From: a virus
Reading direction: 5' to 3' (one strand)
Length of the DNA stretch: 51,528 nucleotides
Virus record (IMG/VR): IMGVR_UViG_3300025789_000052
Location: 1-51,528 of that record
The notes under the pieces: generated by a model
The model's database searches: none
The model's input: only the letters and a program-made list of their open reading frames with translations
What the model was told of the DNA's origin: nothing
In this document: positions 28,927-47,983 of the stretch, piece after piece
Position numbering within the stretch: the first letter of the stretch is position 1
How the letters are laid out: every line of letters begins with the position of its first letter
Translations under genes and position numbers: made by a program

Positions 28927-29003
28927 TGGTCGGAGTACAAGGATTCGAACCTTGGACCCCCTGGTCCCAAACCAGGTGCGCTACCAGACTGCGCTACACT
29001 CCG
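28927..29003 (-). tRNA. tRNA-Pro (UGG)
   Basis: Acceptor CGGAGTG, D-arm and anticodon loop TTTGGGA, T-loop TTCGAAT and CCA canonical. Confidence 0.95.
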
Positions 29004-29013
29004 AAAAAATGCG

Positions 29014-29087
29014 TGGAGCGGAATATCAGAATCGAACTGATGACCGAAGATTGGAAATCTGCTGTTTTACCATTAAACTAATCCCGC
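29014..29087 (-). tRNA. tRNA-Gly (UCC)
   Basis: Acceptor GCGGGAT, anticodon loop TTTCCAA, T-loop TTCGATT, encoded CCA. Confidence 0.95.
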
Positions 29088-29098
29088 ACACTTTATAG

Positions 29099-29426
29099 GT
29101 GCTCTCTGTTGGAATCGAACCAAACTGTTCTGCTCCGTATCTTCCTGGCACTTTCGGTAGTTAGTCGACTTAGTACCTAACTCGTGTTATCCAGTGTAGC
29201 AAAACTTCAGAAAGCATTTATAAAGTGTCTAGCTACCTACACCACATAGGCCCTAGACTGAGCTGTTACTCTGTCCACGTTCTTTTCCATCTAGACGGGA
29301 CAACGCCCCCGCCTTTGTGATTTCTCAAGTCGCCCCTAAGGGGGGCCTTGCGGTAGATCCAATGCACCGTACAGTTATCGTTACTGTAATGACGCTACTT
29401 AGGTAACGGCCAGTAGTTCCGGGGTT
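29099..29426 (-). ncRNA. Candidate structured non-coding RNA, type unknown
   Basis: 328 bases with no ORF between tRNA-Gly and the radical SAM gene, rich in perfect local hairpins on the minus strand (CTACT/AGTAG, ACAGT/ACTGT, CCCC-TTA-GGGG, CCTA-TGTGGTG-TAGG, AGTTAG/CTAACT). The 3' end carries a T-arm-like GGTTCGATTCC followed by GAGAGCACC, and GGTGC 240 bases upstream can pair with GCACC. Not matched to tmRNA (found elsewhere), RNase P or group I intron cores. Confidence 0.45.
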
Positions 29427-30887: not shown

Positions 30888-30904
30888 TGATGTTTCTTTA
30901 TAGT

Positions 30905-30980
30905 TGGTGCCCCCACCATGATTCGAACACGGGACCTACGGTTTACAAAACCGTTGCTCTACCAGCTGAGCTAAAGGGGC
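30905..30980 (-). tRNA. tRNA-Thr (UGU)
   Basis: Acceptor GCCCCTT, D-arm TAGCTCAGCTGGTAGAGC, anticodon loop TTTGTAA, T-loop TTCGAAT, encoded CCA. Confidence 0.95.
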
Positions 30981-30986
30981 AAAATT

Positions 30987-31211
30987 TTATTCTGCTTTAA
31001 ATGTTTCTACAACTTTTATTTTACCAATGTTTAATTTCTTCTTAAGAATTTTAACACGATTAGCAATTTTTGCCTTATCTTTTGGCTTACTAGATTTTTC
31101 TAACAGTTCTGTTAGCTGTGCTAGACTTAGTGGGCCAAGACGAGTCTTGCCAGTTTTAGTTTTTAATGAATCTGCCATACGAGTTTTTTGATTACTTCCT
31201 TTTGTTGCCAT
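30987..31211 (-). CDS. Small basic hypothetical protein, 74 aa
   Basis: MATKGSNQKTRMADSLKTKT, strongly basic with a lysine-rich helix (KAKIANRVKILKKKLNI). May bind nucleic acid. Lies alone between two tRNA genes. No family recognised. Confidence 0.65.
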   Translation of the reverse strand: MATKGSNQKTRMADSLKTKTGKTRLGPLSLAQLTELLEKSSKPKDKAKIANRVKILKKKLNIGKIKVVETFKAE

Positions 31212-31247
31212 AATAACATGTCCTTGTCTGTTATGTACTGCATTGTT

Positions 31248-31323
31248 TGGTGGAGGTGACAGGACTTGAACCCGCTACCTTGACCTTGCAAAGGTCCTGC
31301 TCTACCAGATGAGCTACACCCCC
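31248..31323 (-). tRNA. tRNA-Ala (UGC)
   Basis: Acceptor GGGGGTG, D-arm TAGCTCATCTGGTAGAGC, anticodon loop TTTGCAA, T-loop TTCAAGT, encoded CCA. Confidence 0.93.
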
Positions 31324-31330
31324 AAATTCT

Positions 31331-31555
31331 TTATTCTACGCTTACTGCACTTGTTTCAGTAACTTGATAGTTACTTGTTCCACGTGGCGCACTCTTATCG
31401 CGTGTAGGAGTCTTAATTACAACTTCACTGCATAGCTGAGCATCGATCATCATACGCTTGTATTGATTACGCTGTTCTGCTGTACAACCTTTCATTAAAC
31501 CGATCATTCGTTTTGTTGTCTTACTCAACTTGAATGTCTTGTGTGCTTTTAACAT
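31331..31555 (-). CDS. Small basic hypothetical protein, 74 aa
   Basis: MLKAHKTFKLSKTTKRMIGL, basic N-terminal helix then EQRNQYKRMMIDAQL and a Thr/Ser-rich tail. Located between tRNA-Ala and tRNA-Ser with no other genes. Unknown function. Confidence 0.65.
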   Translation of the reverse strand: MLKAHKTFKLSKTTKRMIGLMKGCTAEQRNQYKRMMIDAQLCSEVVIKTPTRDKSAPRGTSNYQVTETSAVSVE

Positions 31556-31574
31556 AAATTCCCTTTTAAATTTT

Positions 31575-31662
31575 TGGCGGAAAGTATAGGATTCGAACCT
31601 ATGCGCCCCTTTCGGAACGACAGTTTAGCAAACTGCTGCCTTAACCACTCGGCCAACTTTCC
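31575..31662 (-). tRNA. tRNA-Ser (GCU)
   Basis: Class II with long variable arm, acceptor GGAAAGT, anticodon loop TTGCTAA, T-loop TTCGAAT, encoded CCA. Confidence 0.93.
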
Positions 31663-31683
31663 AAATACTTTATAATACTACCT

Positions 31684-31691
31684 GATAAATA
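31684..31691 (+). promoter_or_regulatory. T4-type late promoter box
   Basis: GATAAATA, TTTAC, ATG at 31697: 5-base spacing, implying a leaderless mRNA. Confidence 0.6.
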
Positions 31692-31696
31692 TTTAC

Positions 31697-32305
31697 ATGA
31701 ATACCTACTCTATACCCCTTAACTTTGATTTGCCTCTTTTTAACACACCACTTAGCCCAGTAGACTTTTTAAAAAGTCAATCAGCGTGGGCTGACAATGT
31801 TAAAACAAATCCAAGACTAGCTACTCACTTTAAACTTAATTGGCAAACTGATCTAAGCGATGAACTGAAACAGTTTTTTCTAGACCATGGACAAGAAGTT
31901 CGTCTTTGCGAAATCTTTTATAGATATCGCAATACTGTTAGTGGCATACACAGTGACGACAAAGAAGTAGGTGACTATTCTAAAATGAATTGGATCTTAG
32001 GTGGAGAAGATAGTGAAATGCATTGGTACACTATTAATGATTCTCACTATACTAAACTTGAAGCTAAACCGTTAAATGAAACACCGATTGCTTCACATTC
32101 AATCTTGTATCTACCAGAAGATGTTACTGTAGCATACTCTGAAAATGTTAGGGGTCCTGCTCTTGTACAAGTAGGTGTACCACATAACATCAGAAATGGC
32201 AGTCAAGAACGCTGGTGTGTTAGCGTAGTATTTAGAGATAATAAATTTGGACGACGTCCAACTATGCTAGAAGCTAAAGAGATATTTAAACAATATCTAT
32301 CCTAA
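31697..32305 (+). CDS. 2OG-Fe(II) oxygenase-like protein
   Basis: 202 aa. SGIHSDDKEVGDYSKMNWIL has H-x-D, GVPHNIRNGSQERWCVSVVF has distal His and Arg. Only plus-strand protein gene in this stretch of minus-strand tRNAs, with its own late box. Confidence 0.75.
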   Translation: MNTYSIPLNFDLPLFNTPLSPVDFLKSQSAWADNVKTNPRLATHFKLNWQTDLSDELKQFFLDHGQEVRLCEIFYRYRNTVSGIHSDDKEVGDYSKMNWILGGEDSEMHWYTINDSHYTKLEAKPLNETPIASHSILYLPEDVTVAYSENVRGPALVQVGVPHNIRNGSQERWCVSVVFRDNKFGRRPTMLEAKEIFKQYLS

Positions 32306-32306
32306 T

Positions 32307-32391
32307 TGGTGCGAGTACCCGGAGTCGAACCGGGACACCTTGCGGCGAGAGATTTTAAGTCTCTTGTGTCTACCAATTTCACCATACTCGC
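32307..32391 (-). tRNA. tRNA-Leu (UAA)
   Basis: Class II, acceptor GCGAGTA, anticodon loop CTTAAAA, long variable arm, T-loop TTCGACT, encoded CCA. Confidence 0.94.
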
Positions 32392-32401
32392 AATTTAATC
32401 T

Positions 32402-32475
32402 TGGCGTCCCCCTAGGGACTCGAACCCCAACGAACGGTTTTGGAGACCGCTATGCTGCCATTACATCAGAGAGAC
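32402..32475 (-). tRNA. tRNA-Trp (CCA)
   Basis: Acceptor GTCTCTC with two G-U pairs, anticodon loop CTCCAAA, T-loop TTCGAGT, encoded CCA. Confidence 0.9.
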
Positions 32476-32481
32476 TCTACT

Positions 32482-32571
32482 TGGCGGAAACGGTGAGATT
32501 TGAACTCACGGTGCCTTTCGACACGACAGTTTTCAAGACTGTTGCAATAAGCCGGACTCTGCCACATTTCC
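32482..32571 (-). tRNA. tRNA-Ser (UGA)
   Basis: Class II, acceptor GGAAATG, anticodon loop CTTGAAA, long variable arm, T-loop TTCAAAT, encoded CCA. Confidence 0.93.
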
Positions 32572-32645
32572 ATATAGAAATACACTAGGGACTAGGTCAC
32601 CTTACTATTCGGACAAGGCCGATGTTGCCTAATGTATTTTTATAT
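32572..32645 (-). ncRNA. Spacer hairpin element, type C
   Basis: Between tRNA-Leu(UAG) and tRNA-Ser(UGA). Outer arms ATATAAAAATACATTAGG and CCTAGTGTATTTCTATAT pair nearly end to end (one mismatch plus G-U); the inner part contains GTAAGG. A homologous element sits at 39668. Could be a processing hairpin or small RNA. Confidence 0.5.
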
Positions 32646-32727
32646 GGTGCCCCAAGAGAGACTCGAACTCTCACGCTTGCGCACTGGCTTCTAAGACCAG
32701 CGTGTCTACCAATTCCACCATCGGGGC
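32645..32727 (-). tRNA. tRNA-Leu (UAG)
   Basis: Class II, acceptor GCCCCGA, anticodon loop CTTAGAA, long variable arm, T-loop TTCGAGT, encoded CCA. Confidence 0.94.
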
Positions 32728-32787
32728 ATTACTTTTAATTTTTTAAAGAACGTTTTTACTAATTGCTTAGTATGTATGTATCTATCT

Positions 32788-32816
32788 ATTATACAACTAA
32801 ATCATCTTTGCGTCAA
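32788..32816 (-). promoter_or_regulatory. Sigma70-type promoter for tRNA/protein cluster
   Basis: -35 TTGACG, 17 bases, -10 TATAAT, about 60 bases before the tRNA-Leu(UAG) 5' end. Confidence 0.85.
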
Positions 32817-32867
32817 CCTATTTATTGTCAAATAAATAAAATTATGAACTATTAGATCAATCTAGTT

Positions 32868-33503
32868 TTAAAATTCTAACGAAACCATAGGATCATTTGG
32901 GCCAGTCTTTCCAGACCAAAATGTGTTAAATGCTAGACTGCGTCTTTCAGTTGCAGGACGATCGTGTATTACATAATGATTAACTGTAGATAGAAATAGT
33001 ACCATATGATGCTTTAATCCATTTTCAATTTCAGTAAATCTACTAGCTATTGATCCTACCGGTAAGAATTGTTCTTTATCAAACAGATGAAAAGGGATAG
33101 TTCTATTCATAGTTTCTATAAAGAAATTTAAGTTAGCCGGATGATCGTCTAAAAATAATACTCCGCTGACTACACTAAACGGATGATTATGCGGATCCTG
33201 TCTATCAGTATTAGGGCGTGTTATATTAGCCCAACTATGTGTCATACGCAATTTTGTAAACTCTGTGGTATTCTGCGCATACCTTAGATAATTTTCGCAC
33301 TCATTGACAATAGCATCTTGCTCTGCTTTTAGAGATTTCGAATCAAAAAAATCGTAAGTTTTACTTATGTTGTTTGTAGGCAATCGACCGTTCGTTGCAA
33401 ATTCAGTTTTCTTAAATTCAAAATCAATTTTATCAAAGTCTAATAAGTCAGACATATCCTTGATTAGGATACCGTCGTTTGCAATGTTAATTATAGCGTC
33501 CAT
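32868..33503 (-). CDS. 2OG-Fe(II) oxygenase-like protein
   Basis: 211 aa. DPHNHPFSVVSGVLFLDDHP (His/acidic ligands) and NHYVIHDRPATERRSLAFNT (distal His, Arg) match the putative 2OG-Fe(II) oxygenase_5 family common in T4-type phages of aquatic hosts. Flanked by tRNA genes; no near-consensus promoter. Confidence 0.8.
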   Translation of the reverse strand: MDAIINIANDGILIKDMSDLLDFDKIDFEFKKTEFATNGRLPTNNISKTYDFFDSKSLKAEQDAIVNECENYLRYAQNTTEFTKLRMTHSWANITRPNTDRQDPHNHPFSVVSGVLFLDDHPANLNFFIETMNRTIPFHLFDKEQFLPVGSIASRFTEIENGLKHHMVLFLSTVNHYVIHDRPATERRSLAFNTFWSGKTGPNDPMVSLEF

Positions 33504-33513
33504 TTATATTCCT

Positions 33514-33588
33514 TGGCCGGCCTTGCAGGAATCGAACCCACACCACTTGTTTCGAAGACAAGCATGATATCCATTTCACCAAAGGCCG
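33514..33588 (-). tRNA. tRNA-Arg (UCG)
   Basis: Acceptor CGGCCTT, anticodon loop CTTCGAA, T-loop TTCGATT, encoded CCA; its 5' end abuts the stop of the gene at 33589. Confidence 0.92.
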
Positions 33589-34131
33589 TTAAAATAATTG
33601 TTCTAGTGGAAATTTTCCAAACCCTAGTGTTGCTGTTAATCTTGATTCAGTGCATTTGGGATTAGTAAACACACCATGCGGAGTTCTAGTACTAAACACT
33701 ACAGGTGCCGTTAGTTCTACAGCATCTATCTCTATTAACGGATTCTTTTTTTCAATAGTTAAAAATGTATCACCTTCAGCGCCTATTGCTTCAACTAGTT
33801 TATTTCCATTTAGATCAAAAAATCTAGTATACGATCCTTGACAATTAGCCACAGGCCATAACACTCTGTAATCGTAGTTGCCTACATCAACATGTACTCC
33901 GCCACTCGCCCCAGGGGATCTATGCACTATAGAAATCATTGTAATTGGATGATCGATAATCTGTGAACATGCTACAGCCAATTCTGGAATAGCCTCTAGC
34001 ACTGCATTTCGATCAAGAGTATTCCAATCCCATTTCTTTTCTAGGATATCTGTGTGATTGATTACATACTCATAGAGCTTTTTAGTAATAAGCTCATGAT
34101 CTGCAATGGATAGAAATTTATAAGTCTTCAT
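33589..34131 (-). CDS. 2OG-Fe(II) oxygenase-like protein
   Basis: 180 aa from ATG 34131 (MKTYKFLSIADHELIT); the longer frame would run into a tRNA gene. GVHVDVGNYDYRVLWPVANC has H-x-D; TPHGVFTNPKCTESRLTATL has distal His and Arg. Paralogue of the protein at 19087. Confidence 0.75.
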   Translation of the reverse strand: MKTYKFLSIADHELITKKLYEYVINHTDILEKKWDWNTLDRNAVLEAIPELAVACSQIIDHPITMISIVHRSPGASGGVHVDVGNYDYRVLWPVANCQGSYTRFFDLNGNKLVEAIGAEGDTFLTIEKKNPLIEIDAVELTAPVVFSTRTPHGVFTNPKCTESRLTATLGFGKFPLEQLF

Positions 34132-34134
34132 ATA

Positions 34135-34209
34135 TGGAGCAGGATATCGGGTTCGAACCGATGACATTCTCGTTGGCAACGAGACATTCTACCACTGAAT
34201 TAATCCTGC
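34135..34209 (-). tRNA. tRNA-Gly (GCC)
   Basis: Acceptor GCAGGAT, anticodon loop TTGCCAA, T-loop TTCGAAC, encoded CCA. A canonical Gly(GCC) tRNA, unlike the odd one at 8872. Confidence 0.94.
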
Positions 34210-34210
34210 A

Positions 34211-34831
34211 TTAATCTTTAAATGTGCCTCTATCAAATACTACATTAAAACTTAAACTGATTCTATCATGATCAGTAGTGTTAGTAGTAGTACCGTGTGC
34301 AATCCAACCTGGAAATAGAACAACTCTACCTTCTATAGGTTCGTATGCAACACGGCTAGGAATATGTTCAAAACAGTGGCTACTTTCAATTAGTGGATTT
34401 GGACTGTTTAGATAGATGTTGCCATCCACCTGATTTGATTTAAAATAGTACACACCACTTAAATCAGTTGATCCATGTGTATGTACCGGAGCATACTGTC
34501 CACTACTAGTTTTAGTTAACCAAGAATGTAAAATTTTAAAATTATGTACTTTAACTTTTGGTGCTTCAATCTCTATCATGTAGTTTCGTATATGACGATG
34601 GATCTCATCGTTGACTACTTTGAGTATTGGATCGTCCAGCAAGTTAGAGTTAAATTGTGGATCAGTTAACAAATGTGTGTTTGGTTCAGCACGTTTGTGA
34701 CGTTCAAACATACCGATGTTTTCCATTCTTTCTACCATGAGTGCTAGCGCAGTCTGCATTTTGCTAAACACAGGATCTTCAACCTGTGCATGATATACTG
34801 GTGTAAAAAATAATTGTTCAATAGCCATCAT
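34211..34831 (-). CDS. 2OG-Fe(II) oxygenase-like protein
   Basis: 206 aa. APVHTHGSTDLSGVYYFKSN and PGWIAHGTTTNTTDHDRISL carry the metal and Arg positions of the phage 2OG-Fe(II) oxygenase_5 family. Opens MMAIEQLFFTPVYHAQV, a typical start for that family. AAAGG ribosome site. Confidence 0.82.
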   Translation of the reverse strand: MMAIEQLFFTPVYHAQVEDPVFSKMQTALALMVERMENIGMFERHKRAEPNTHLLTDPQFNSNLLDDPILKVVNDEIHRHIRNYMIEIEAPKVKVHNFKILHSWLTKTSSGQYAPVHTHGSTDLSGVYYFKSNQVDGNIYLNSPNPLIESSHCFEHIPSRVAYEPIEGRVVLFPGWIAHGTTTNTTDHDRISLSFNVVFDRGTFKD

Positions 34832-34841
34832 TTACCTTTTT

Positions 34842-35090
34842 ATTAGTAGAAAACACTTAGAGGTTTTGGTCCATTTAAGAAACATGCCTACCCGAGATCT
34901 ACAGTCTCGCCTCATTTGTCTAGCAAACATGGAGCATCTTCACTGAACTCAAAATCGCCCAGGCTGTAAACCCTGATTTATATCGCCAGCTCGCATACAG
35001 TTTATAACTGTCTTTTCTCCGCAACTTTCCGGGTTACAAATACTTGTTCTTTCGAAATGCTTGTATGCCTTGTGCTCTCTACTAATAATT
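34842..35090 (-). ncRNA. Candidate structured RNA closed by long stem
   Basis: 249 bases with no ORF. The two ends ATTAGTAGAGAGCAC and GTGTTTTCTACTAAT can form a near-perfect 15-bp stem. Inside are clean hairpins on the minus strand: ACAGTT-ATA-AACTGT, CAGG-GTTTACAG-CCTG, CGAGA-CTGTAGAT-CTCG. No known family recognised. Confidence 0.55.
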
Positions 35091-35633
35091 TTATTTAATA
35101 CCAATTATCATAAATCGAGTAAAACTCCATTCGGGATAATTAAAATCTTTACTGCCTTTATATGCAATACTTGTTAATTTATACAAATCTACAAAACTTT
35201 GCAAGTCTTTTGAATGAACATGATGATCATCATGCGGCATGTTGTTGCCTTGCAATACTACTCTAGTGCCTTTAGGGATACGATTGAACCATTCCATACT
35301 TTCAAAATGTTCAGTGCTAGTATTGATGATCAAGTCACCAAACTGTCCTTCGTAATTATTACAATCTTGGGTGAAGGCTTTAAATTGCCATTCTTTAATG
35401 ATCCAGTTTTCGTTAATCATATCAGCGATAGGCTGGCAAGCGGGATCTATATCCAAACTTCTAATCTTGTCAACTTGAAACTTACCTCGGCTCAATAATA
35501 AGAACGCAGTAATACCATACCACCCTGCGTAGATGTATGTTAGCTTGCTAGTCCAACCTAAGTTTTCTAATTCTTCGCACAGCCAAATTTTACTGCTAAT
35601 CTGGCCGCTACTAAAAGCATCTTTATTAATCAT
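35091..35633 (-). CDS. Class I SAM-methyltransferase-like protein
   Basis: 180 aa. YIYAGWYGITAFLLLSRGKF followed by RSLDIDPACQPIADM resembles the motif I/II region of Rossmann methyltransferases, with a late GDLIINTSTEHF and TRFMIIGIK. Similar proteins occur in cyanophages. Late box AATAAGTA ends 4 bases before the ATG. Confidence 0.7.
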   Translation of the reverse strand: MINKDAFSSGQISSKIWLCEELENLGWTSKLTYIYAGWYGITAFLLLSRGKFQVDKIRSLDIDPACQPIADMINENWIIKEWQFKAFTQDCNNYEGQFGDLIINTSTEHFESMEWFNRIPKGTRVVLQGNNMPHDDHHVHSKDLQSFVDLYKLTSIAYKGSKDFNYPEWSFTRFMIIGIK

Positions 35634-35637
35634 GCAG

Positions 35638-35645
35638 TACTTATT
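35638..35645 (-). promoter_or_regulatory. T4-type late promoter box (G variant)
   Basis: AATAAGTA, CTGC, ATG at 35633. Variant of the late box with G for A, same 4-base spacing. Confidence 0.5.
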
Positions 35646-35654
35646 AAAAACAAC

Positions 35655-35729
35655 TGGCCCGGCCTACAGGAATCGAACCCATATTCACGGTGTAGAAGAC
35701 CGCTGTATTATCCATTATACTAAGGCCGG
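35655..35729 (-). tRNA. tRNA-Arg (UCU)
   Basis: Acceptor CCGGCCT, anticodon loop CTTCTAC, T-loop TTCGATT, encoded CCA. Confidence 0.92.
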
Positions 35730-35736
35730 ATGTACC

Positions 35737-35812
35737 TGGTGCTCCTAGATAGAATCGAACTATCATTGCCTCCATACCAAAGAGGAGTTTTACCATTAAA
35801 ACTATGGGAGCA
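35737..35812 (-). tRNA. tRNA-Gln-like (UUG), enlarged anticodon loop
   Basis: Acceptor TGCTCCC, T-arm ATAG-TTCGATT-CTAT, CCA encoded. The anticodon loop reads CTTTGGTA with only a 4-bp clean stem (CTCC/GGAG) plus a U-U, so the loop can be drawn as 8 bases; anticodon UUG (Gln) or, if shifted, UGG (Pro). U1-A72 favours Gln. Confidence 0.7.
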
Positions 35813-35850
35813 AAAACTCCCAGGGGACCTTATAGGAACAACTCTGGGAG
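35811..35850 (-). terminator. Intrinsic terminator
   Basis: Stem CTCCCAG/CTGGGAG with a 20-base loop and TTTTTG after it on the minus strand; ends transcripts coming from the TROVE gene. Confidence 0.7.
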
Positions 35851-35862
35851 CAAATATTTGGT

Positions 35863-35885
35863 GTGGGTGTTTATAGTACACCCAC
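35863..35885 (-). other. Perfect 8-bp hairpin after TROVE gene
   Basis: GTGGGTGT-ACTATAA-ACACCCAC, no U-run. Just downstream of the TROVE stop codon; may be an mRNA 3'-end stabiliser or pause. Confidence 0.6.
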
Positions 35886-35892
35886 AAAACTT

Positions 35893-37305
35893 TTAAAGAA
35901 CGTAACGATCACTCATTACAGTCTTAAGCATGATGCCTTCTGGAGTGAATTGATCCAAATCAGCGGCTAGCAAGCTAGTCATGATTGATGGACTAAATCC
36001 ACTTACCAAAGCGGCACCACTCTTGTCTGCCTTAACAGGTACGTTGTCTGAACTGTTTAGGTTCCAGAAAACAATCTGTGGCACAGAGTAGCCTGCGGCT
36101 TCGAACTTACGTTCGATCATTTCCATCGCGCTGTCGTCGTAACGGGCGCATTGGTTGAACTGCATGTCTGACAAGATTAGCAACATGGCTGGCATGTCGC
36201 TGGCTGGGACATTGCCCTTAACTGCAACCGATAGGATCTTGTCCATAGCGGCATACAAGTTAGTGCTCATATCCCAATTACTCTTAGACATTTGATCAAC
36301 CTTTTGAACGATGTTACCCTTTAGAGTAACAAGTTCTGGCTTGTCTGAGAAAGTTAAGAATGTGTCCTTGAACACGCCCTTGTTCTTGTCTGCTAGGTAC
36401 AAGCCCAAGCTGATCGAAACGTCCATGCAAGTTACGCCAGTGTTCTTTCCTGCTGGGCAAGACATAGAACCGCTAACGTCTACAATTGGCATGATGCTAG
36501 CATCTCCAACGTAGTTTGGCAAGGCATCCCATTGTGCGATCACATGGTCTGTTTCTGTCTTGTCAAAATTTGCACGGTAGCTACCAATCACACCCTTCAA
36601 CACATCATGTGGGAAGATTGCAGAGGCGTTAACCTTAACAGTCTTATCACCACTTACCAACTTGGCAACATACTCAGCAAACGCTGGGCTGTGACGGTTG
36701 AAAGCCTTCTTGTAGATTCGAGAAGCTACAGAGGGAACGTGACTGAAGTTGATGTTATCCCAATCTCCAGCACACATTTGGGTTTCAACAACCTTTGTAA
36801 GTGCCACAAGGCTCTTACGGTATTGCTTTGGAGTCATGCCAAAGAAGGCACGAACTTCAGCGGCAATTTGACCCTTACGAGGAGTCCACTTTGCGGCCAA
36901 ACCGTTCTTAGCACGTAGGGCATCGCCCAACATGGTATAAGCGGCTGACTTTAACACTGGTGATTGGAAAACAAAGATATCGTCCCAACGGCCGATTTCA
37001 GGAATCTTCTTCAACAGAGCCAAAGCGGCGTCTGGGTCACGCTTTTCTAGATGTACTAGAATATCGCGGAACAATTGACGTTCACCTGCACCACCACGGA
37101 CATCACGTGCCCATTGTGCAATGCGTAGTGCTACATCACTGTTTTCTACGTAAGCGGCTGTAAAGTCGCCTACGATGTTCTTACCACGGCTTGCACCGAT
37201 TTTGTAGAACAAGTCAACTGTAGCCTTAGCTGTTGACTTACGTGCCTTCATACCGTTTGCGGTACGGGCTTCTTGATTTGCTACTGCTTGAACAAATGCG
37301 TTCAT
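35893..37305 (-). CDS. Ro60-like (TROVE/DUF2828-type) RNA-binding protein
   Basis: 470 aa. N-terminal helical-repeat ring region with RDVRGGAGERQLFRDILVHL and IGRWDDIFVF, then C-terminal von Willebrand A domain with MIDAS DVSGSMS (near residue 276) and LLILSDMQFN. Ro60-class proteins bind misfolded RNAs and Y RNAs. Upstream lie at least three structured RNAs with shared terminal stems, one in its own leader. In bacteria and phages Ro-like genes sit next to Y RNA genes, which fits here. Confidence 0.85.
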   Translation of the reverse strand: MNAFVQAVANQEARTANGMKARKSTAKATVDLFYKIGASRGKNIVGDFTAAYVENSDVALRIAQWARDVRGGAGERQLFRDILVHLEKRDPDAALALLKKIPEIGRWDDIFVFQSPVLKSAAYTMLGDALRAKNGLAAKWTPRKGQIAAEVRAFFGMTPKQYRKSLVALTKVVETQMCAGDWDNINFSHVPSVASRIYKKAFNRHSPAFAEYVAKLVSGDKTVKVNASAIFPHDVLKGVIGSYRANFDKTETDHVIAQWDALPNYVGDASIMPIVDVSGSMSCPAGKNTGVTCMDVSISLGLYLADKNKGVFKDTFLTFSDKPELVTLKGNIVQKVDQMSKSNWDMSTNLYAAMDKILSVAVKGNVPASDMPAMLLILSDMQFNQCARYDDSAMEMIERKFEAAGYSVPQIVFWNLNSSDNVPVKADKSGAALVSGFSPSIMTSLLAADLDQFTPEGIMLKTVMSDRYVL

Positions 37306-37318
37306 GATATTTCCTTTA

Positions 37319-37376
37319 CAGAATGTATTTTGGTTTCAGATTATGGATTGAAATTAAAAATTGCTGTTAACATTCT
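37319..37376 (-). ncRNA. Y RNA-like stem element E3 in TROVE leader
   Basis: 58 bases ending 14 bases before the TROVE start codon. Terminal stem AGAATGT...ACATTCT with the shared TTAACAGCAA just inside the 5' arm. The ribosome site AAAGG follows directly, so folding or protein binding here could control TROVE translation. Confidence 0.6.
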
Positions 37377-37384
37377 AAATTTAA

Positions 37385-37592
37385 CAGGATGGACGGGACA
37401 GTGAAAGTTTATCGACTAGCCCCTATCCCCAGTATATCGGTTCAAGTCCCACTAGTCTATTCATCGCATTCTGCGTTGAAACCTATCTTGTTTCTACAAG
37501 CACTATCTAGTATTCTACTAGCACTAGCCCTTTAACGTCTTTCGACAATTATCATGGCAGTTCAGGTATAGTAAAGTTGCTGTATCCATCCT
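37385..37592 (-). ncRNA. Y RNA-like element E2 (208 nt)
   Basis: Terminal stem AGGATGG/CCATCCT and ATACAGCAAC inside the 5' arm. Insert holds several perfect hairpins with small loops: CTAGTA-GAA-TACTAG, CTTGT-AGAA-ACAAG, CGCA-GAA-TGCG, GTC-GAAA-GAC and an outer GACTAG/CTAGTC. No ORF. Confidence 0.65.
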
Positions 37593-37603
37593 AAGAATAC
37601 AAA

Positions 37604-37752
37604 CAGGATCGTTTTTGTCGATTTGATTAGCCTGGATCTCCACACCAGGTTGAGCGAACCGCATATGATAATAACCTTCAAAGCCGTTAAGCTCCAGTTA
37701 TTATCGCTAAGTTCGTTCCTTCATAGTATATGAATGTTGCTGAACCGATCCT
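37604..37752 (-). ncRNA. Y RNA-like element E1 (149 nt, cloverleaf-like)
   Basis: Terminal stem AGGATCG/CGATCCT with GTTCAGCAAC inside the 5' arm. Arms: TTCATA-TAC-TATGAA; a 9-bp stem GATAATAAC/GTTATTATC capped by a loop, like a closed acceptor stem; and CCTGG-TGTGGAGAT-CCAGG. This order (capped long stem in the middle) resembles a permuted tRNA mimic. Confidence 0.65.
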
Positions 37753-37762
37753 AAAACTGTCT

Positions 37763-37782
37763 ACAAGCATTTCTGCTTGCTA
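37763..37782 (-). other. GNRA-tetraloop hairpin
   Basis: CAAGCA-GAAA-TGCTTG: 6-bp stem with GAAA loop, just upstream of E1. Approximate ends; likely part of the E1 transcript's 5' region. Confidence 0.55.
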
Positions 37783-37849
37783 TGTGTCTATTATATTATA
37801 TTTCTCTATGAGAGTCTATACATTTTGGCAAAACTGCTAAAATATAATT

Positions 37850-37927
37850 TGGTACCCTACCCCTGATTCGAACAGGGAGAACTTCTCCTTTTGAGAGAGA
37901 TGACTTTACCAATTTGTCTAGTAGGGC
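37850..37927 (-). tRNA. tRNA with CAA anticodon (Leu codon), short variable loop
   Basis: Acceptor GCCCTAC/GTAGGGT, D-arm GAC...GTC, anticodon loop CTCAAAA, T-arm CCCTG-TTCGAAT-CAGGG and CCA all pair. CAA reads UUG (Leu), but the variable region is only about 6 bases, whereas Leu tRNAs are class II; true charging is uncertain. Confidence 0.75.
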
Positions 37928-37929
37928 AT

Positions 37930-38021
37930 TGGTACCAGCGGAGGGAATCGAACCCTCTCAAGAACGCTAATCTGGCGCTAAAAGGCTTATAAGACCTCTC
38001 TGACTTCCAAGTCTCGCTGGC
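37930..38021 (-). tRNA. Odd class-II tRNA with UAU anticodon
   Basis: Acceptor GCCAGCG/CGCTGGT, T-arm GAGGG-TTCGATT-CCCTC and CCA are sound. Anticodon loop CTTATAA gives UAU (Ile, AUA). The D-arm is a tight GACTT-GG-AAGTC hairpin and there is a 24-base variable arm with a second stem AGCGC/GCGTT, not expected of an Ile tRNA. Confidence 0.6.
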
Positions 38022-38028
38022 AGTGTAT

Positions 38029-38104
38029 TGGTGCCGCCTTGAGGGATCGAACCTCATTCCTCGGTGCTTCAAACCGGTGCTATGACCACATCAGCTAAAG
38101 CGGC
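38029..38104 (-). tRNA. tRNA-Phe (GAA)
   Basis: Acceptor GCCGCTT, anticodon loop TTGAAGC, T-loop TTCGATC, encoded CCA. Confidence 0.88.
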
Positions 38105-38109
38105 AAATT

Positions 38110-38185
38110 TGGGGTGTTAGATGGGGAACGATCCCATACTATCGCTTTCACAGAGCAATGTGCAGACCACTACACTACTAACACC
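38110..38185 (-). tRNA. tRNA-His (GUG)
   Basis: Anticodon loop CTGTGAA; extra 5' G(-1) opposite C73, the His hallmark; encoded CCA. The T-loop is unusual (ATCGTTC in place of TTCGANT). Confidence 0.88.
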
Positions 38186-38189
38186 ATAG

Positions 38190-38197
38190 AATAAATA
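38190..38197 (+). promoter_or_regulatory. T4-type late promoter box
   Basis: AATAAATA, TTGT, ATG at 38202: 4-base spacing, leaderless layout. Confidence 0.6.
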
Positions 38198-38201
38198 TTG
38201 T

Positions 38202-38369
38202 ATGGAAAATGATTATACTGAATTTTTGAAACTGTACAAGCTCAGCAATAAACCTTATAGCCCGTCAAAAACTTGGACTACTGAAAAAGAGTTTACGCCG
38301 TCATACGAGTTACCAGCAAAACCAGTATTTGTTCTTGAAGAACTTAAGAAAATAAACACCAACCAGTAA
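38202..38369 (+). CDS. Hypothetical protein, 55 aa, plus strand
   Basis: MENDYTEFLKLYKLSNKPYS then SPSKTWTTEKEF and a C-terminal VLEELKKINTNQ. Own late box 4 bases upstream. Converges with the oxygenase gene on the other strand (26-base 3' overlap). No family recognised. Confidence 0.65.
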   Translation: MENDYTEFLKLYKLSNKPYSPSKTWTTEKEFTPSYELPAKPVFVLEELKKINTNQ

Positions 38370-38889
38370 CAATATACTTGGTATCTTCAGGAGCAACTAT
38401 GCCCCTATGATAGTGTGTCCATTCAGCGGGCCATACAAGTGTAAGTCCTTTACGTGCGGGTGTAACTAGTTTTTGATTTAAAAACTCAGTGCCGCCACCT
38501 AGTTCAATATCATTCAGATATGTCATGTAGGCAAGATGTCGATTCCTAAATTGAGGATTGCCATTGTTTTCACAGTGGGCATCGGCATAATATTTTCCAG
38601 GTTCGTATCGTTGAATCCTGGGCATAGATAATCCCCACATCTGCAAATCTTCAAAACAAAGCGGATACATTTTCTTGTATAGCTCAATCACTGGCCACAG
38701 GTTGCTACAATACTGATCAAAAAGTTCTTTATCAAACTTATCAAAATTTATATCTGTGTACTGTTTAGTACCGGATAAAAATACACTAGTATCTAATTCA
38801 CCTTTGGCTACAATAGCATCGCACAGTTGTGTATCAATATACCAACCTGCAATAAAATTGTTTAAATGATTGTTTTCGTAATCTTGCAT
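38344..38889 (-). CDS. Prolyl-4-hydroxylase-like 2OG-Fe(II) oxygenase
   Basis: 181 aa. YADAHCENNGNPQFRNRHLA (H-x-E in place of H-x-D), then YMTYLNDIELGGGTEF and WTHYHRGIVAPEDTKYIVTG (distal His, Lys for 2OG), the P4H pattern. Late box GATAAGTA ends 5 bases before ATG. Sits alone in the tRNA array. Confidence 0.85.
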   Translation of the reverse strand: MQDYENNHLNNFIAGWYIDTQLCDAIVAKGELDTSVFLSGTKQYTDINFDKFDKELFDQYCSNLWPVIELYKKMYPLCFEDLQMWGLSMPRIQRYEPGKYYADAHCENNGNPQFRNRHLAYMTYLNDIELGGGTEFLNQKLVTPARKGLTLVWPAEWTHYHRGIVAPEDTKYIVTGWCLFS

Positions 38890-38894
38890 ACGAG

Positions 38895-38902
38895 TACTTA
38901 TC
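38895..38902 (-). promoter_or_regulatory. T4-type late promoter box (G variant)
   Basis: GATAAGTA, CTCGT, ATG at 38889. Confidence 0.5.
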
Positions 38903-38910
38903 TAGTACAG

Positions 38911-38985
38911 TGGTACCGCCAAAAGGAATCGAACCTCTATTCCCACGTTCGTAGCGTAGTGTATTATCCATTATACTATAGCGAT
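38911..38985 (-). tRNA. tRNA-Arg (ACG)
   Basis: Acceptor ATCGCTA with G-U pairs, anticodon loop CTACGAA, T-loop TTCGATT, encoded CCA. A34 would need editing to inosine by the host. Confidence 0.88.
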
Positions 38986-38991
38986 ATAAAT

Positions 38992-39068
38992 TGGCAGGGG
39001 TTATCGGATTCGAACCGATGATACTAATTTCAAAGACTAGTGCTTTAGGCCGGACTAAGCTAAACCCC
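38992..39068 (-). tRNA. tRNA-Gln (UUG)
   Basis: Acceptor GGGGTTT, anticodon loop CTTTGAA, T-loop TTCGAAT, encoded CCA. Confidence 0.9.
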
Positions 39069-39079
39069 AACAGAAAAAA

Positions 39080-39196
39080 CAGGATACATTTTATAGCGCA
39101 CTACCAATTGTGCTATTCACGCATGAAGCGTAAAACAGGATTCGAACCTGTAACCTCTCGATTTGCAGTCGAAAAATTGTTTGCTGTTAGTATCCT
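39080..39196 (-). ncRNA. Y RNA-like element carrying a circularly permuted tRNA-Cys
   Basis: Outer stem AGGATAC/GTATCCT with CTAACAGCAAAC inside the 5' arm, as in its relatives. Inside, read 5' to 3' on the minus strand: anticodon arm TTCGA-CTGCAAA-TCGAG (GCA, Cys), variable AGGTT, T-arm ACAGG-TTCGAAT-CCTGT, acceptor 3' strand TTTACGC, a 5-base cap TTCAT, acceptor 5' strand GCGTGAA, D-arm GCAC-AATTGGTA-GTGC. The base after the 3' acceptor strand is U, the Cys discriminator. So the 3' half precedes the 5' half. Confidence 0.8.
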
Positions 39197-39201
39197 AAAC
39201 T

Positions 39202-39275
39202 TGGTGCTCCATCGAGGAATCGAACCACGATTACCGGACTACAAAACCGGTGTATTACCATTATACTAATAGAGC
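39202..39275 (-). tRNA. tRNA-Thr (UGU), second copy
   Basis: Acceptor GCTCTAT, loop TTTGTAG closed by a U-U opposite, T-loop TTCGATT, encoded CCA. Different backbone from the Thr tRNA at 30905. GUA (Tyr) is a less likely reading. Confidence 0.8.
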
Positions 39276-39283
39276 AAATAAAA

Positions 39284-39345
39284 CAGGATGTATTTTTACG
39301 GTTTTGATTAAAAGTCAAATGTATAAATTTTGCTGTTAACATCCT
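39284..39345 (-). ncRNA. Short Y RNA-like stem element B
   Basis: 62 bases: AGGATGT/ACATCCT with TTAACAGCAAAA inside the 5' arm; the AU-rich insert holds TTTGACTTTTAATCAAA hairpin only. Confidence 0.65.
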
Positions 39346-39350
39346 TAAAC

Positions 39351-39424
39351 TGGTACCTCGTTGGAGAATCGAACTCCCATTAGCGGTATGTAACACCGCA
39401 GTTCTACCATTAAACTACCGAGGC
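39351..39424 (-). tRNA. tRNA-Val (UAC), second copy
   Basis: Acceptor GCCTCGG, anticodon loop GTTACAT, T-loop TTCGATT, encoded CCA; unrelated in sequence to the Val tRNA at 26543. Confidence 0.88.
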
Positions 39425-39430
39425 ATAAAT

Positions 39431-39506
39431 TGGTCTCCATGCTAGGATTCGAACCTAGACTCTACCGCCCCAAACGGCAAGTGCAACCTGGTAACACTTC
39501 ACAGAG
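39431..39506 (-). tRNA. tRNA-Pro (UGG), second copy
   Basis: Acceptor CTCTGTG/CATGGAG with G-U pairs, anticodon loop TTTGGGG, T-loop TTCGAAT, encoded CCA. Confidence 0.85.
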
Positions 39507-39513
39507 ATAAAAT

Positions 39514-39588
39514 TGGTGGAGACCGAGGAAATCGAATCCTTCTAGACAAGATGCTTGCAAGGCAACTCCGTAGCCCACTACTGCCCCC
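39514..39588 (-). tRNA. Degenerate tRNA, anticodon UGC (Ala)
   Basis: CCA encoded and anticodon loop CTTGCAA clear, but the acceptor has G-U pairs and a mismatch, the D-arm is a short GTAG-TGGG-CTAC hairpin, and the anticodon and T stems each have a mismatch. May be a decaying copy of tRNA-Ala or a mimic. Confidence 0.55.
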
Positions 39589-39593
39589 AATTT

Positions 39594-39668
39594 TGGTAGT
39601 AACGGTGAGAATCGAACTCACTTGGGACACCGTATGAAGGTGTTGCATTACCTCAATGCTACGTTACC
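39594..39668 (-). tRNA. tRNA-Met (CAU)
   Basis: Acceptor GGTAACG, anticodon loop TTCATAC, T-loop TTCGATT, encoded CCA. Could be elongator Met or lysidine-type Ile2. Confidence 0.88.
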
Positions 39669-39757
39669 ATATAGAAACACACTCGGACCGTTTTCATCAA
39701 AAGACGGCGGCCTTACCTCATGCAGACTATGTCTTACATCGAATATGTTTTTATATG
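39668..39757 (-). ncRNA. Spacer hairpin element, type D
   Basis: Homologue of the element at 32572: arms ATATAAAAACATATTCG and CGAGTGTGTTTCTATAT pair; inner region shares GTAAGG and GTCCG. Lies exactly between tRNA-Lys(UUU) and tRNA-Met. Confidence 0.5.
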
Positions 39758-39830
39758 GTAGGGGCACAGGGACTCGAACCCTGATTGACCGGTTAAAAGC
39801 CGGATATTCTAGCCTTTGAATTATACCCCC
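39756..39830 (-). tRNA. tRNA-Lys (UUU)
   Basis: Acceptor GGGGGTA, anticodon loop CTTTTAA, T-loop TTCGAGT, encoded CCA. Confidence 0.9.
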
Positions 39831-39833
39831 ATA

Positions 39834-39910
39834 TGGTCCACTCAGTCGGATTCGAACCGACACCTCATTGATTAAGAGTCAAGTGCGCTACCATTAACGC
39901 TACGAGTGGA
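39834..39910 (-). tRNA. tRNA-Lys (CUU)
   Basis: Acceptor TCCACTC/GAGTGGA, anticodon loop CTCTTAA, T-loop TTCGAAT, encoded CCA. Confidence 0.88.
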
Positions 39911-40282
39911 TGGATCCGTAATTAATTTCTTTTACGTGCCATCCTAGACCATACGGGGTGCTAAGATGACACTAACGTTTAGCACGTTTCATGTCATTCT
40001 CCTATGTTGAATTTGTACAAGTTGTTCGCCGCACAACTTGTAAAGCGGGGGTCTGTTAAATTTGTTAAAGTAGTACCACCATCGTTATTGGTACCATTCA
40101 CCCATGTATATAAAGCCGGCTGGGACTCGGTACGTCACTTGGGATACTAGTCCAGTTTAGCAACCTGTATGCTTCCGTCCTTCCGGGCGGCCGGGAGTTG
40201 AACCCGTTAACCTTTTACTACCTCGGTCCTTCGAAGAAACCTTATTAGCATGACATTCTCTTGCTGACACTCTAACAAAACT
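39911..40282 (-). ncRNA. Structured RNA block with tRNA-like module and two micro-ORFs
   Basis: 372 bases between tRNA-Lys(CUU) and tRNA-Asp. Minus-strand order: GTGTCAGCAAGAG (recalls the shared CAGCAA), T-arm-like CGGG-TTCAACT-CCCG (40191-40207), a capped stem CCGCCC-GGAA-GGACGG (40175-40190), D-arm-like AGC-ATACAGGTT-GCT (40159-40173); then ACATGGGTGAATGG, a perfect hairpin TACAAGTTGT/ACAACTTGTA, and AGGAG followed by tiny ORFs MKRAKR (39972-39992) and MARKRN (39922-39942). Looks like another Y RNA-type tRNA mimic. Confidence 0.6.
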
Positions 40283-40358
40283 TGGCGCCGTGGACGGGAA
40301 TCGAACCCGCCTAGGTCTCATCGACAGTGAGGTGCCCTACCCAGAGAGCTACCACGGC
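40283..40358 (-). tRNA. tRNA-Asp (GUC)
   Basis: Acceptor GCCGTGG, anticodon loop CTGTCGA, T-loop TTCGATT, encoded CCA (discriminator G). Confidence 0.88.
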
Positions 40359-40363
40359 ATGTT

Positions 40364-40439
40364 TGGCATCGCGTACGGGATTCAAACCCGTGTCCATAAG
40401 TTGAAAGCCTACGTGTCCTGTCCAGTAGACGAACGCGAT
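40364..40439 (-). tRNA. tRNA-Glu (UUC)
   Basis: Acceptor ATCGCGT, anticodon loop CTTTCAA, T-loop TTTGAAT, encoded CCA. Confidence 0.85.
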
Positions 40440-40448
40440 ATAATAAAA

Positions 40449-40505
40449 CAGGATGCATTTTGTTTTCACCAAAAGAAAAGTTTTTAACTTTGCTGTTAGC
40501 ATCCT
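40449..40505 (-). ncRNA. Short Y RNA-like stem element A
   Basis: 57 bases: AGGATGC/GCATCCT with TAACAGCAAAG inside the 5' arm, AU-rich insert. Confidence 0.65.
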
Positions 40506-40510
40506 AAACT

Positions 40511-40584
40511 TGGTTCCTCCAACAAGAATTGAACTTGTAATGACCGGTTATCAGCCGATTGTTATACCATTTAACTATAGAGGA
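40511..40584 (-). tRNA. tRNA-Ile (GAU)
   Basis: Acceptor TCCTCTA, anticodon loop CTGATAA, T-loop TTCAATT, encoded CCA. Confidence 0.9.
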
Positions 40585-40589
40585 ATAAT

Positions 40590-40663
40590 TGGTTGCGGGT
40601 GATGGAATCGAACCACCAACTGGAGCTTATGAGACTCCCGAGATACCGTTTCTCTAACCCGCT
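40590..40663 (-). tRNA. tRNA-Met (CAU), 1-72 mismatch
   Basis: Acceptor AGCGGGT against ACCCGCA leaves A1-A72 unpaired, an initiator-like feature; anticodon loop CTCATAA; T-loop TTCGATT; encoded CCA. The anticodon stem lacks the three G-C pairs of tRNA-fMet, so initiator status is doubtful. Confidence 0.85.
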
Positions 40664-40669
40664 ATTGAT

Positions 40670-40745
40670 TGGCTCCCCAGGGTGGGATCGAACCACCGAC
40701 ACCTTGATTAACAGTCAAGTGCAACTACCGCTGTGCTACTAGGGA
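40670..40745 (-). tRNA. tRNA-Asn (GUU)
   Basis: Acceptor TCCCTAG, anticodon loop CTGTTAA, T-loop TTCGATC, encoded CCA. Confidence 0.92.
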
Positions 40746-40751
40746 ATAACT

Positions 40752-40826
40752 TGGTACACCTAAGGAGAATCGAACTCCTCTTACTCACGTGAAAGGCGAG
40801 TGTCCTAACCGATAGACGATAGGTGC
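40752..40826 (-). tRNA. tRNA-Glu (UUC), second copy
   Basis: Acceptor GCACCTA, anticodon loop CTTTCAC, T-loop TTCGATT, encoded CCA. Confidence 0.92.
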
Positions 40827-40832
40827 ATAAAT

Positions 40833-40909
40833 TGGCGGAATAGACGGGACTCGAACCCGCGACCCCATGCGTGACAGGCATGTGCGCTAACCAACTGCGC
40901 CACTATTCC
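40833..40909 (-). tRNA. tRNA-Asp (GUC), second copy
   Basis: Acceptor GGAATAG, D-arm GGCGCAGTTGGTTAGCGC, anticodon loop CTGTCAC, T-loop TTCGAGT, encoded CCA; the best canonical Asp. Confidence 0.95.
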
Positions 40910-40914: not shown

Positions 40915-40998
40915 TGGTGGAGCATCTCGGGATCGAACCAAGCGTGTCAAAGACGGCGGATTTACAGTCCACTGCATCACCATTGATGCTTCTGCTCC
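40915..40998 (-). tRNA. tRNA-Tyr (GUA)
   Basis: Class II, acceptor GGAGCAG, anticodon loop CTGTAAA, long variable arm, T-loop TTCGATC, encoded CCA. First tRNA behind the array promoter. Confidence 0.93.
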
Positions 40999-47590: not shown

Positions 47591-47619
47591 CATAAAAATG
47601 GCTACCGAAGTAGCCATTT
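47591..47619 (-). terminator. Intrinsic terminator with UUCG loop
   Basis: AAATGGCTAC-TTCG-GTAGCCATTT then TTA; ends the tmRNA transcript on the minus strand. Confidence 0.9.
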
Positions 47620-47639
47620 GGTTAAGTTGGGTGATAAGG

Positions 47640-47946
47640 ATTAACCAATCCTCACGAGGGCAGTTTTTTAGGCTGCGATTGCAAATTCTGCATCATCGTT
47701 CATTGCTGAAACGCTGACTGGAACTTGGAAATACTCGAATGTAGATGCTTTTGCATTTACTAATTTTGCTTGATTTACGGTCATCGCCTACCGAGTTGCC
47801 GTCTCTACTATCTAGCCCAATCGATTACCGGAGCATCCCCACCTAAATATACACCATACACTTAGGTGGAGATGAGGGGATTCGAACCCCTGTCTTGAAC
47901 TCCTTCGCTTTGAAGGGATTACAACTATAACGCTTATTATAGCGTC
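47640..47946 (-). ncRNA. ssrA: Two-piece (permuted) tmRNA
   Basis: Minus-strand order: T-arm GGGG-TTCGAAT-CCCC, acceptor 3' strand CATCTCC, intervening loop (about 24 bases, TTAGG/CCTAA pairs), acceptor 5' strand GGGGATG at 47840, then GGTAATCGATTGGG and the tag reading frame. Resume codon GCA at 47754 (context AATTAGTAAAT-GCA like bacterial tmRNAs), 28-residue tag starting AKASTFEYFQVPV and ending NDDAEFAIAA, stop at 47668. Late box GATAAATA upstream (47951-47958). Confidence 0.82.
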
Positions 47947-47950
47947 TTTG

Positions 47951-47958
47951 TATTTATC
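47951..47958 (-). promoter_or_regulatory. T4-type late promoter box before tmRNA
   Basis: GATAAATA, about 5 bases before the presumed 5' end of the tmRNA precursor. Confidence 0.55.
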
Positions 47959-47983
47959 ATACAAGTATTTTGGTAAAAAAGAA

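What the first reader, a model, noticed from the sequence alone, without database searches (positions are those of the whole stretch)
39080..39196. Circularly permuted tRNA-Cys sequence inside a conserved RNA stem
The 3' half (anticodon arm GCA, T-arm, acceptor 3' strand) comes before the 5' half (acceptor 5' strand, D-arm), joined by a TTCAT cap; every stem pairs and the base after the 3' strand is the Cys discriminator U. The permutation point is next to the anticodon stem and is flanked by a 7-bp outer stem. Bacterial Y RNAs are known to carry tRNA-like modules with a loop-capped acceptor, but a near-perfect permuted tRNA with a full anticodon arm would be unusual.
Basis: partly seen in the sequence, partly recalled or inferred. 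Interest (0 to 1): 0.92.

Follow-up and report, generated by a model that had tools for sequence, protein, structure and literature searches.

The report
Phage Y RNA with permuted tRNA
A virus of bacteria carries a small RNA shaped like a complete transfer RNA cut open and re-joined in the wrong order, one of a set of RNAs encoded near a Ro-like protein gene, many of which display the anticodon arm of different tRNAs, possibly as bait for bacterial enzymes that cut tRNAs.

Summary
Confirmed and extended. On the minus strand, 39197-39078 folds exactly as described: a 7-bp outer stem enclosing anticodon arm, T arm, UUCAU-capped acceptor and D arm, i.e. a tRNA opened between nucleotides 26 and 27. 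Re-ordered, ARAGORN calls it tRNA-Cys. Homologues show 99.6% pairing and strong covariation. It is most likely not a tRNA gene but a YrlA-type Y RNA: the outer module (GGAUnnnnnCAGCAA...AUCCUGUU) recurs in 257 distinct RNAs, several per phage (five others in this window), and a gene 1.8 kb downstream encodes a protein whose predicted fold matches only Ro60/TROVE structures in the PDB at E<0.001. Known YrlA RNAs are already permuted tRNA mimics, but with D, T and acceptor arms only. New here is a complete anticodon arm, swapped on one constant scaffold (GCA, UCU, UAU, UUG), so U73 is no Cys signal. Sister RNAs show only an anticodon arm (Lys, Thr, Arg, Ser, Tyr...). Three bacterial genomes carry the same variant beside a TROVE gene. 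Best mechanism: Ro-tethered bait for proteins that grip anticodon arms, most likely anticodon nucleases. That step is inferred.

The parts
39078..39197 (-). the RNA of the finding: Y RNA with a complete circularly permuted tRNA
   Evidence: fold; covariation; model R1 141 bits (part of its own training set); Rfam YrlA 30.8 bits, E 5.1e-5 (gathering 69)
39190..39196 (-). outer stem, 5' strand AGGAUAC, followed by UAACAGCAA
   Evidence: invariant in A1
39081..39087 (-). outer stem, 3' strand GUAUCCU, followed by GUU
39157..39173 (-). anticodon arm UUCGA-CUGCAAA-UCGAG, anticodon GCA at 39166-39164
39135..39151 (-). T arm ACAGG-UUCGAAU-CCUGU
39116..39134 (-). acceptor stem closed by the UUCAU cap (39127-39123)
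39098..39113 (-). D arm GCAC-AAUUGGUA-GUGC
39282..39346 (-). short sister RNA: same outer module, only an anticodon arm UUUGA-CUUUUAA-UCAAA (39319-39303), the tRNA-Lys(UUU) loop
   Evidence: R2 88 bits (part of its own training set)
40447..40506 (-). short sister RNA, hairpin UUUUC-UUUUGGU-GAAAA, not a canonical anticodon arm
   Evidence: R2 50.6 bits
37602..37753 (-). long sister RNA of the GGAUCG class
   Evidence: R2 21.8 bits
37383..37593 (-). long sister RNA of the GGAUGG class (ends read by eye)
   Evidence: sequence; only a partial R2 match at 37561-37593, 12.5 bits, E 1
37317..37377 (-). short sister RNA directly upstream of the Ro-like gene
   Evidence: R2 42 bits
35893..37305 (-). 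Ro-like protein, 470 aa: DUF2828 plus DUF7788 (vWA with DxSxS MIDAS)
   Evidence: Pfam; phrog_850 'RNA-binding protein'; best fold matches are Ro60
39202..39275 (-). tRNA-Thr(UGU), whose CCA end lies 4 nt before the RNA
38992..39069 (-). tRNA-Gln(UUG), 8 nt after the RNA

Best explanation
It is a Ro-associated Y RNA of the YrlA type whose effector domain is a complete, circularly permuted tRNA. Shown: the fold, its conservation, the shared terminal module, the nearby Ro-like gene, and a constant scaffold with interchangeable anticodon arms. Inferred: the outer module binds the phage Ro-like ring. The permuted tRNA, with its acceptor end closed by a loop so that it should not be chargeable, acts as bait. 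It offers a host-type anticodon arm to proteins that recognise such arms, most likely host anticodon nucleases set off by infection, and keeps them away from the working tRNAs or brings them to the Ro ring and its partners. Different RNAs of one phage offer different anticodon arms. Identity as a Ro/Y RNA: about 0.9. The bait function: about 0.4.
For: Identity: fold and covariation; Rfam YrlA aligns to the T arm, capped acceptor and D arm in the same order; terminal module shared with RNAs without any tRNA; Ro-like gene downstream, with Foldseek hits below 1e-3 only to 9kop TROVE, 9l5y Ro60 of Thermus phage phiLo and 1yvr Ro. Ro-like gene in 18 of 26 records chosen for pattern matches to these RNAs against 2 of 17 comparison records. 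In a sample of 385 bacterial genomes, three RNAs with this fold and a canonical anticodon arm (L409, L412, L413) lie within about 1.5 kb of a TROVE gene, as does a fourth with a weak arm (L414); the 13 other genomes with hits, mostly ordinary tandem tRNAs where readable, have no TROVE match; L395 shows three YrlA matches in tandem, below gathering. Bait: perfect 5-bp, 7-nt anticodon arms in 74 of 132 short and 16 of 48 permuted RNAs, against 1.4 and 0.2 in shuffles; loops equal those of tRNAs while stems covary and are rarely copies of phage tRNAs; anticodon swapped on a fixed scaffold. Lys/Thr/Asn arms carry U36-A37-A38-U39, the motif common to AriB targets (PMC12409363), in 40 of 41 RNAs against 93 of 179 phage tRNAs (13 of 14 against 43 of 87 distinct arms, p=0.003). 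The sister RNA's Lys arm equals E. coli tRNA-Lys over positions 28-42; the phage's own tRNA-Lys(UUU) arm does not.
Against: No binding, cleavage or expression data. Thirty of 48 permuted relatives lack a recognised anticodon arm, so the arm is not needed for whatever the core does. Many short RNAs show other hairpins. Position 36 is A or U in nearly all canonical arms (44 of 47 distinct), which could reflect a modification enzyme or the ANN/UNN tRNAs favoured by AT-rich phages. The host and its nucleases are unknown. Counts of related sequences are not independent.
Confidence: 0.5

Rival explanations
1. Ordinary YrlA work: the tRNA-like domain tethers the Ro ring to PNPase or another nuclease for structured-RNA decay, and the anticodon arm only helps the core fold like a tRNA.
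For: Described for YrlA/Rsr/PNPase (PMC8394870, PMC7790460); most permuted relatives lack a recognised anticodon arm.
Against: Does not explain arms with exact tRNA loops of many anticodons, nor short RNAs with an anticodon arm and no tRNA core.
Confidence: 0.27
2. The anticodon arm and core are substrates or baits for tRNA-modifying enzymes (A37 modification, TruB, DusA), helping fold, protection or control of modification during infection.
For: Nearly all canonical arms have U36-A37 or A36-A37-A38, the t6A and i6A classes (enzyme rules from general knowledge); YrlA is modified by DusA and TruB (PMC8394870).
Against: Modification alone would not need a range of different anticodons; several sister RNAs lack the motif.
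Confidence: 0.14
3. Sensor: cleavage of the displayed anticodon loop by an active anticodon nuclease is the signal, and the cut Y RNA changes the state of the Ro-like ring or its partners, such as repair enzymes.
For: RNA ligase or RtcB genes near the Ro-like gene in Serratia phage BF and Listeria phage LP-048; Ro and Y RNA sit in RNA repair operons (PMC7790460).
Against: YrlA was not cut in Salmonella when tRNAs were (PMC7790460), although that RNA is described without an anticodon arm; no ligase among the window proteins searched.
Confidence: 0.1
4. A true permuted tRNA gene: the transcript is circularised at the 26/27 junction and trimmed to a working tRNA.
For: All arms and core positions are present and ARAGORN calls the re-ordered sequence tRNA-Cys.
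Against: Same acceptor stem and U73 with UCU, UAU, UUG or GCA anticodons; the flanking stem is shared with RNAs that hold no tRNA; the phage already has tRNA-Cys.
Confidence: 0.04

Closest known systems
YrlA bacterial Y RNA (Rfam RF02553; structure 6CU1)
   Same: Circularly permuted tRNA mimic in the order T arm, loop-capped acceptor, D arm, on a long terminal stem, near a Ro gene
   Different: Below Rfam's gathering score (30.8 of 69 bits); adds a complete anticodon arm between the terminal stem and the variable loop; sits in a phage tRNA array with several sister RNAs
Ro60/Rsr (TROVE) proteins, including phage Ro-like proteins
   Same: Fold match to 9kop, 9l5y and 1yvr, vWA domain with MIDAS residues, Y RNA genes close by; homologues annotated 'Ro-like RNA binding protein' in mycobacteriophages
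   Different: No PF05731 match; Pfam places it in DUF2828/DUF7788; 12-16% identity to the solved structures
Permuted tRNA genes of red algae (general knowledge)
   Same: 3' half before 5' half
   Different: Opened at 26/27 with no sign of splicing; anticodon independent of acceptor; cap of 5 nt
Phage tRNAs that resist or titrate tRNA-cutting defences (PMC10264068, PMC12409363)
   Same: Anticodon arms of targeted tRNAs, encoded in the same tRNA arrays
   Different: Here probably not chargeable, with host-like rather than altered arms, and carried on a Y RNA

Membership tests
Bacterial Y RNA, YrlA type | tRNA-like domain in permuted order: T arm, loop-capped acceptor, D arm | tested here: met
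Bacterial Y RNA, YrlA type | terminal stem formed by the 5' and 3' ends | tested here: met
   7-bp stem, invariant in 16 homologues, covarying in the short sister RNAs
Bacterial Y RNA, YrlA type | encoded near a Ro60 orthologue | tested here: met
   Ro-like gene 1.8 kb downstream; in bacteria within 1.5 kb of TROVE
Bacterial Y RNA, YrlA type | Rfam RF02553 score at or above gathering (69 bits) | tested here: not met
   30.8 bits, E 5.1e-5, model positions 24-84 only
Bacterial Y RNA, YrlA type | binds the Ro protein | not testable with these tools
   needs pull-down or binding assay
Ro60 / TROVE protein | fold of Ro: helical-repeat ring plus vWA domain | tested here: met
   AlphaFold pTM 0.77; Foldseek E 1.2e-7 to 1.3e-6 to three Ro structures, TM about 0.5, rmsd 7.6-8.8
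Ro60 / TROVE protein | Pfam PF05731 | tested here: not met
Ro60 / TROVE protein | MIDAS residues DxSxS, T, D | tested here: met
   D276, S278, S280, T348, D380 invariant in 17 homologues
Functional permuted tRNA gene | acceptor identity elements agree with the anticodon | tested here: not met
   same acceptor and U73 with four anticodons
Functional permuted tRNA gene | processing to a linear tRNA | not testable with these tools
   needs RNA sequencing

The most novel reading that the evidence does not exclude
Phage and some bacterial Ro particles carry an exchangeable set of Y RNAs, each presenting the anticodon arm of a chosen tRNA, either alone or in a complete permuted tRNA that cannot be charged, as a protein-bound bait system against anticodon nucleases.
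Probability: 0.4. Interest if true: 0.93.

Novelty: new variant of a known kind. Interest (0 to 1): 0.82.

Why it matters
Ro60 and Y RNAs have no settled role in phages, and what the tRNA mimicry of Y RNAs is for remains open. An anticodon arm that varies on a fixed scaffold suggests that something reads the anticodon loop of these RNAs, and makes the question testable with known anticodon nucleases (AriB, PrrC, Cas13a). If true, it is a protein-tethered decoy form of counter-defence distinct from resistant phage tRNAs and from tRNA repair. It also warns annotators that tRNA-rich phages hide unannotated tRNA-like RNAs.

Tried and rejected
Working tRNA-Cys: rejected because acceptor and U73 do not follow the anticodon. 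Recent duplication of a phage tRNA: the best alignment score to any window tRNA is about 40 for a sequence of some 73 nt, and anticodon arms are rarely copies. Chance: Markov copies and shuffles. TROVE by Pfam: no hit; single-sequence PDB search: none; profile search: only weak hits, E 0.02 to 0.5, four Ro/TROVE and one ribosomal protein; only the fold search was clear. Tandem tRNAs with a TTCAT spacer imitate the pattern in bacterial genomes: 19 of 20 pattern matches there lack a fully complementary acceptor. The position-36 bias shrinks when only loops of the same form are compared and again with distinct arms, but stays. One search failed on size. Key papers on YrlA (Chen 2014; Wang 2018; Sim 2020) were not held, so I could not check whether anticodon arms in Y RNAs were noted before. 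Two guessed E. coli regions held no tRNA and were replaced (106, 107).

Full report
What was checked. The window is a whole 51,528-base virus record. ARAGORN finds no tRNA there, but if the halves are put back in normal order and CCA added, it reports a 76-nt tRNA-Cys; all 18 RNAs with an anticodon arm, this one included, are called tRNAs in this way. A search for a perfect T arm, capped 7-bp acceptor and D arm in permuted order finds this one place and none in 200 Markov copies of the window. In 16 relatives, 99.6% of pair cells are standard pairs and 11 pairs change on both sides; no shuffle reaches this.

A family, not a single RNA. The outer module, GGAUnnnnnCAGCAA at the 5' end and AUCC(U/C)GUU (with small variations) at the 3' end, recurs. 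From 305 sequences I collected 257 distinct RNAs with it. Some hold a permuted tRNA (48), many are short hairpins (132), others are long (77). The window holds six: this one, 39282-39346, 40447-40506, 37602-37753, 37593-37383 and 37377-37317 (the fifth is read by eye). This RNA lies in a dense tRNA array: it starts right after the CCA of tRNA-Thr(UGU) and ends just before tRNA-Gln.

The protein. The gene at 35893-37305 encodes DUF2828 plus DUF7788, phrog_850 'RNA-binding protein'. It lacks a TROVE match in Pfam, and a profile search of the PDB gives only weak hits, mostly to TROVE and Ro60. An AlphaFold model (pLDDT 78.7, pTM 0.77) has three Foldseek hits below E 0.001, all Ro: a TROVE domain (9kop), Ro60 of Thermus phage phiLo (9l5y) and the Ro autoantigen (1yvr). 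MIDAS residues are invariant. Homologues occur in 682 of 50,697 phage records, named 'Ro-like RNA binding protein' in several mycobacteriophages. In mycobacteriophage LeBron an RNA with the permuted core, but no anticodon arm, lies just after the gene.

What it is. Bacterial YrlA RNA is a known permuted tRNA mimic (PMC11472068, structure 6CU1) with D, T and acceptor arms (PMC8394870). Rfam's YrlA model aligns to 39158-39095 in the same order, E 5.1e-5, but only 30.8 bits against a gathering score of 69. The RNA is therefore a YrlA-type Y RNA in architecture and gene neighbourhood, with one addition: a complete anticodon arm between the terminal stem and the variable loop.

The anticodon arm is swapped. 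One and the same scaffold carries UCU in L211, UAU in L235, UUG in L209 and GCA in the window. Hence the acceptor stem and U73 say nothing about cysteine. The short RNAs often consist of the terminal stem and an anticodon arm only: 74 of 132 have a perfect 5-bp stem and 7-nt loop with U33, against 1.4 in shuffles. In an alignment of 36 of them the stem covaries while the loop keeps its form. The loops equal those of phage tRNAs with the same anticodon; the stems are rarely copies. The window's second RNA shows UUUGA-CUUUUAA-UCAAA, identical over positions 28-42 to E. coli tRNA-Lys; the phage's own tRNA-Lys(UUU) has UCCGG-CUUUUAA-CCGGU. In cultured phages I saw such arms in EfV12-phi1 (GAA, in a permuted tRNA), Serratia BF (UUU), Milchi (UUU, read from the reverse strand by eye) and APT65 (CCU, CAU; outermost stem pair mismatched).

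Bacteria. A scan of bacterial genomes with the exact cap pattern gave 20 matches; 19 lack a fully complementary acceptor and most are tandem tRNAs, and one, L395, is a true case with anticodon GUU in a tandem array of YrlA-like RNAs just upstream of a TROVE gene. In 385 genomes of that class, 17 had model matches. The four that fold as permuted tRNAs with a short cap all lie near a TROVE gene, three with canonical anticodon arms (GUU, CAU, GUU), one weak; the other 13 genomes had no TROVE match, and their hits, where the sequence could be read, look like ordinary tRNAs.

How it may work. Inferred: the terminal module binds the Ro-like ring; the capped acceptor prevents charging; the anticodon arm is offered to proteins that read it. 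Anticodon nucleases are the best candidates. [quoted passage not shown] Cas13a cuts U-rich anticodons (PMC11042736). Lys, Thr and Asn arms here carry that motif in 40 of 41 RNAs against 93 of 179 phage tRNAs; with distinct arms, 13 of 14 against 43 of 87, p=0.003. Nearly all canonical arms have A or U at position 36 (101 of 104; 44 of 47 distinct), more than loop-matched tRNAs. This also fits A37-modifying enzymes, so it does not decide between the rivals. A decoy role for the YrlA tRNA-like domain against an anticodon nuclease was suggested before for Salmonella (PMC7790460).

Limits. Nothing was measured in cells. Sequence counts are not independent. Thirty permuted relatives lack a recognised anticodon arm, so the core presumably has a role without it. 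The host is unknown. Some records chosen by pattern for may not hold a true family member, so 18 of 26 is a rough figure. The main YrlA papers could not be read here, so the claim that the anticodon arm is new rests on a review (PMC8394870) and on searches that found nothing.

Noticed in passing
47595-47977 (-): Phage-encoded permuted (two-piece) tmRNA of the betaproteobacterial type (RF01850 145.8 bits; RF04321 125.3 bits).
   Followed up: no
37602-37753 (-) and relatives such as L008:9396-9562: A long (150-175 nt), well-conserved RNA class with outer stem GGAUCG...CGAUCC close upstream of the Ro-like gene in many phages; fold and role unknown.
   Followed up: partly
L308:3396-3638 (Cronobacter phage S13): Two adjacent tRNAs (annotated Ser, 121 nt, and 'other', 113 nt) carry nearly the same inserted hairpin CGCAAACUGAYAAGUUUGUAUUCAGCA.
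   Followed up: no
26460-40909 (-): 34 of the window's 35 ARAGORN tRNAs lie in this stretch, interspersed with genes for several 2OG-Fe(II) oxygenases and a radical SAM protein; a tryptophan halogenase gene lies just beyond.
   Followed up: no
40918-40998 (-): A borderline tRNA (Rfam 30.9 bits, cut-off 29) not called by ARAGORN.
   Followed up: no
L395:446-1054 (-): Tandem array of YrlA-like RNAs beside a TROVE gene in a Proteobacteria MAG, one with a complete permuted tRNA with anticodon GUU.
   Followed up: partly
L034:3377-3498, L064:3287-3407, L158:11181-11297: Permuted relatives with a plain hairpin in place of the anticodon arm and an extra hairpin after the D arm.
   Followed up: no
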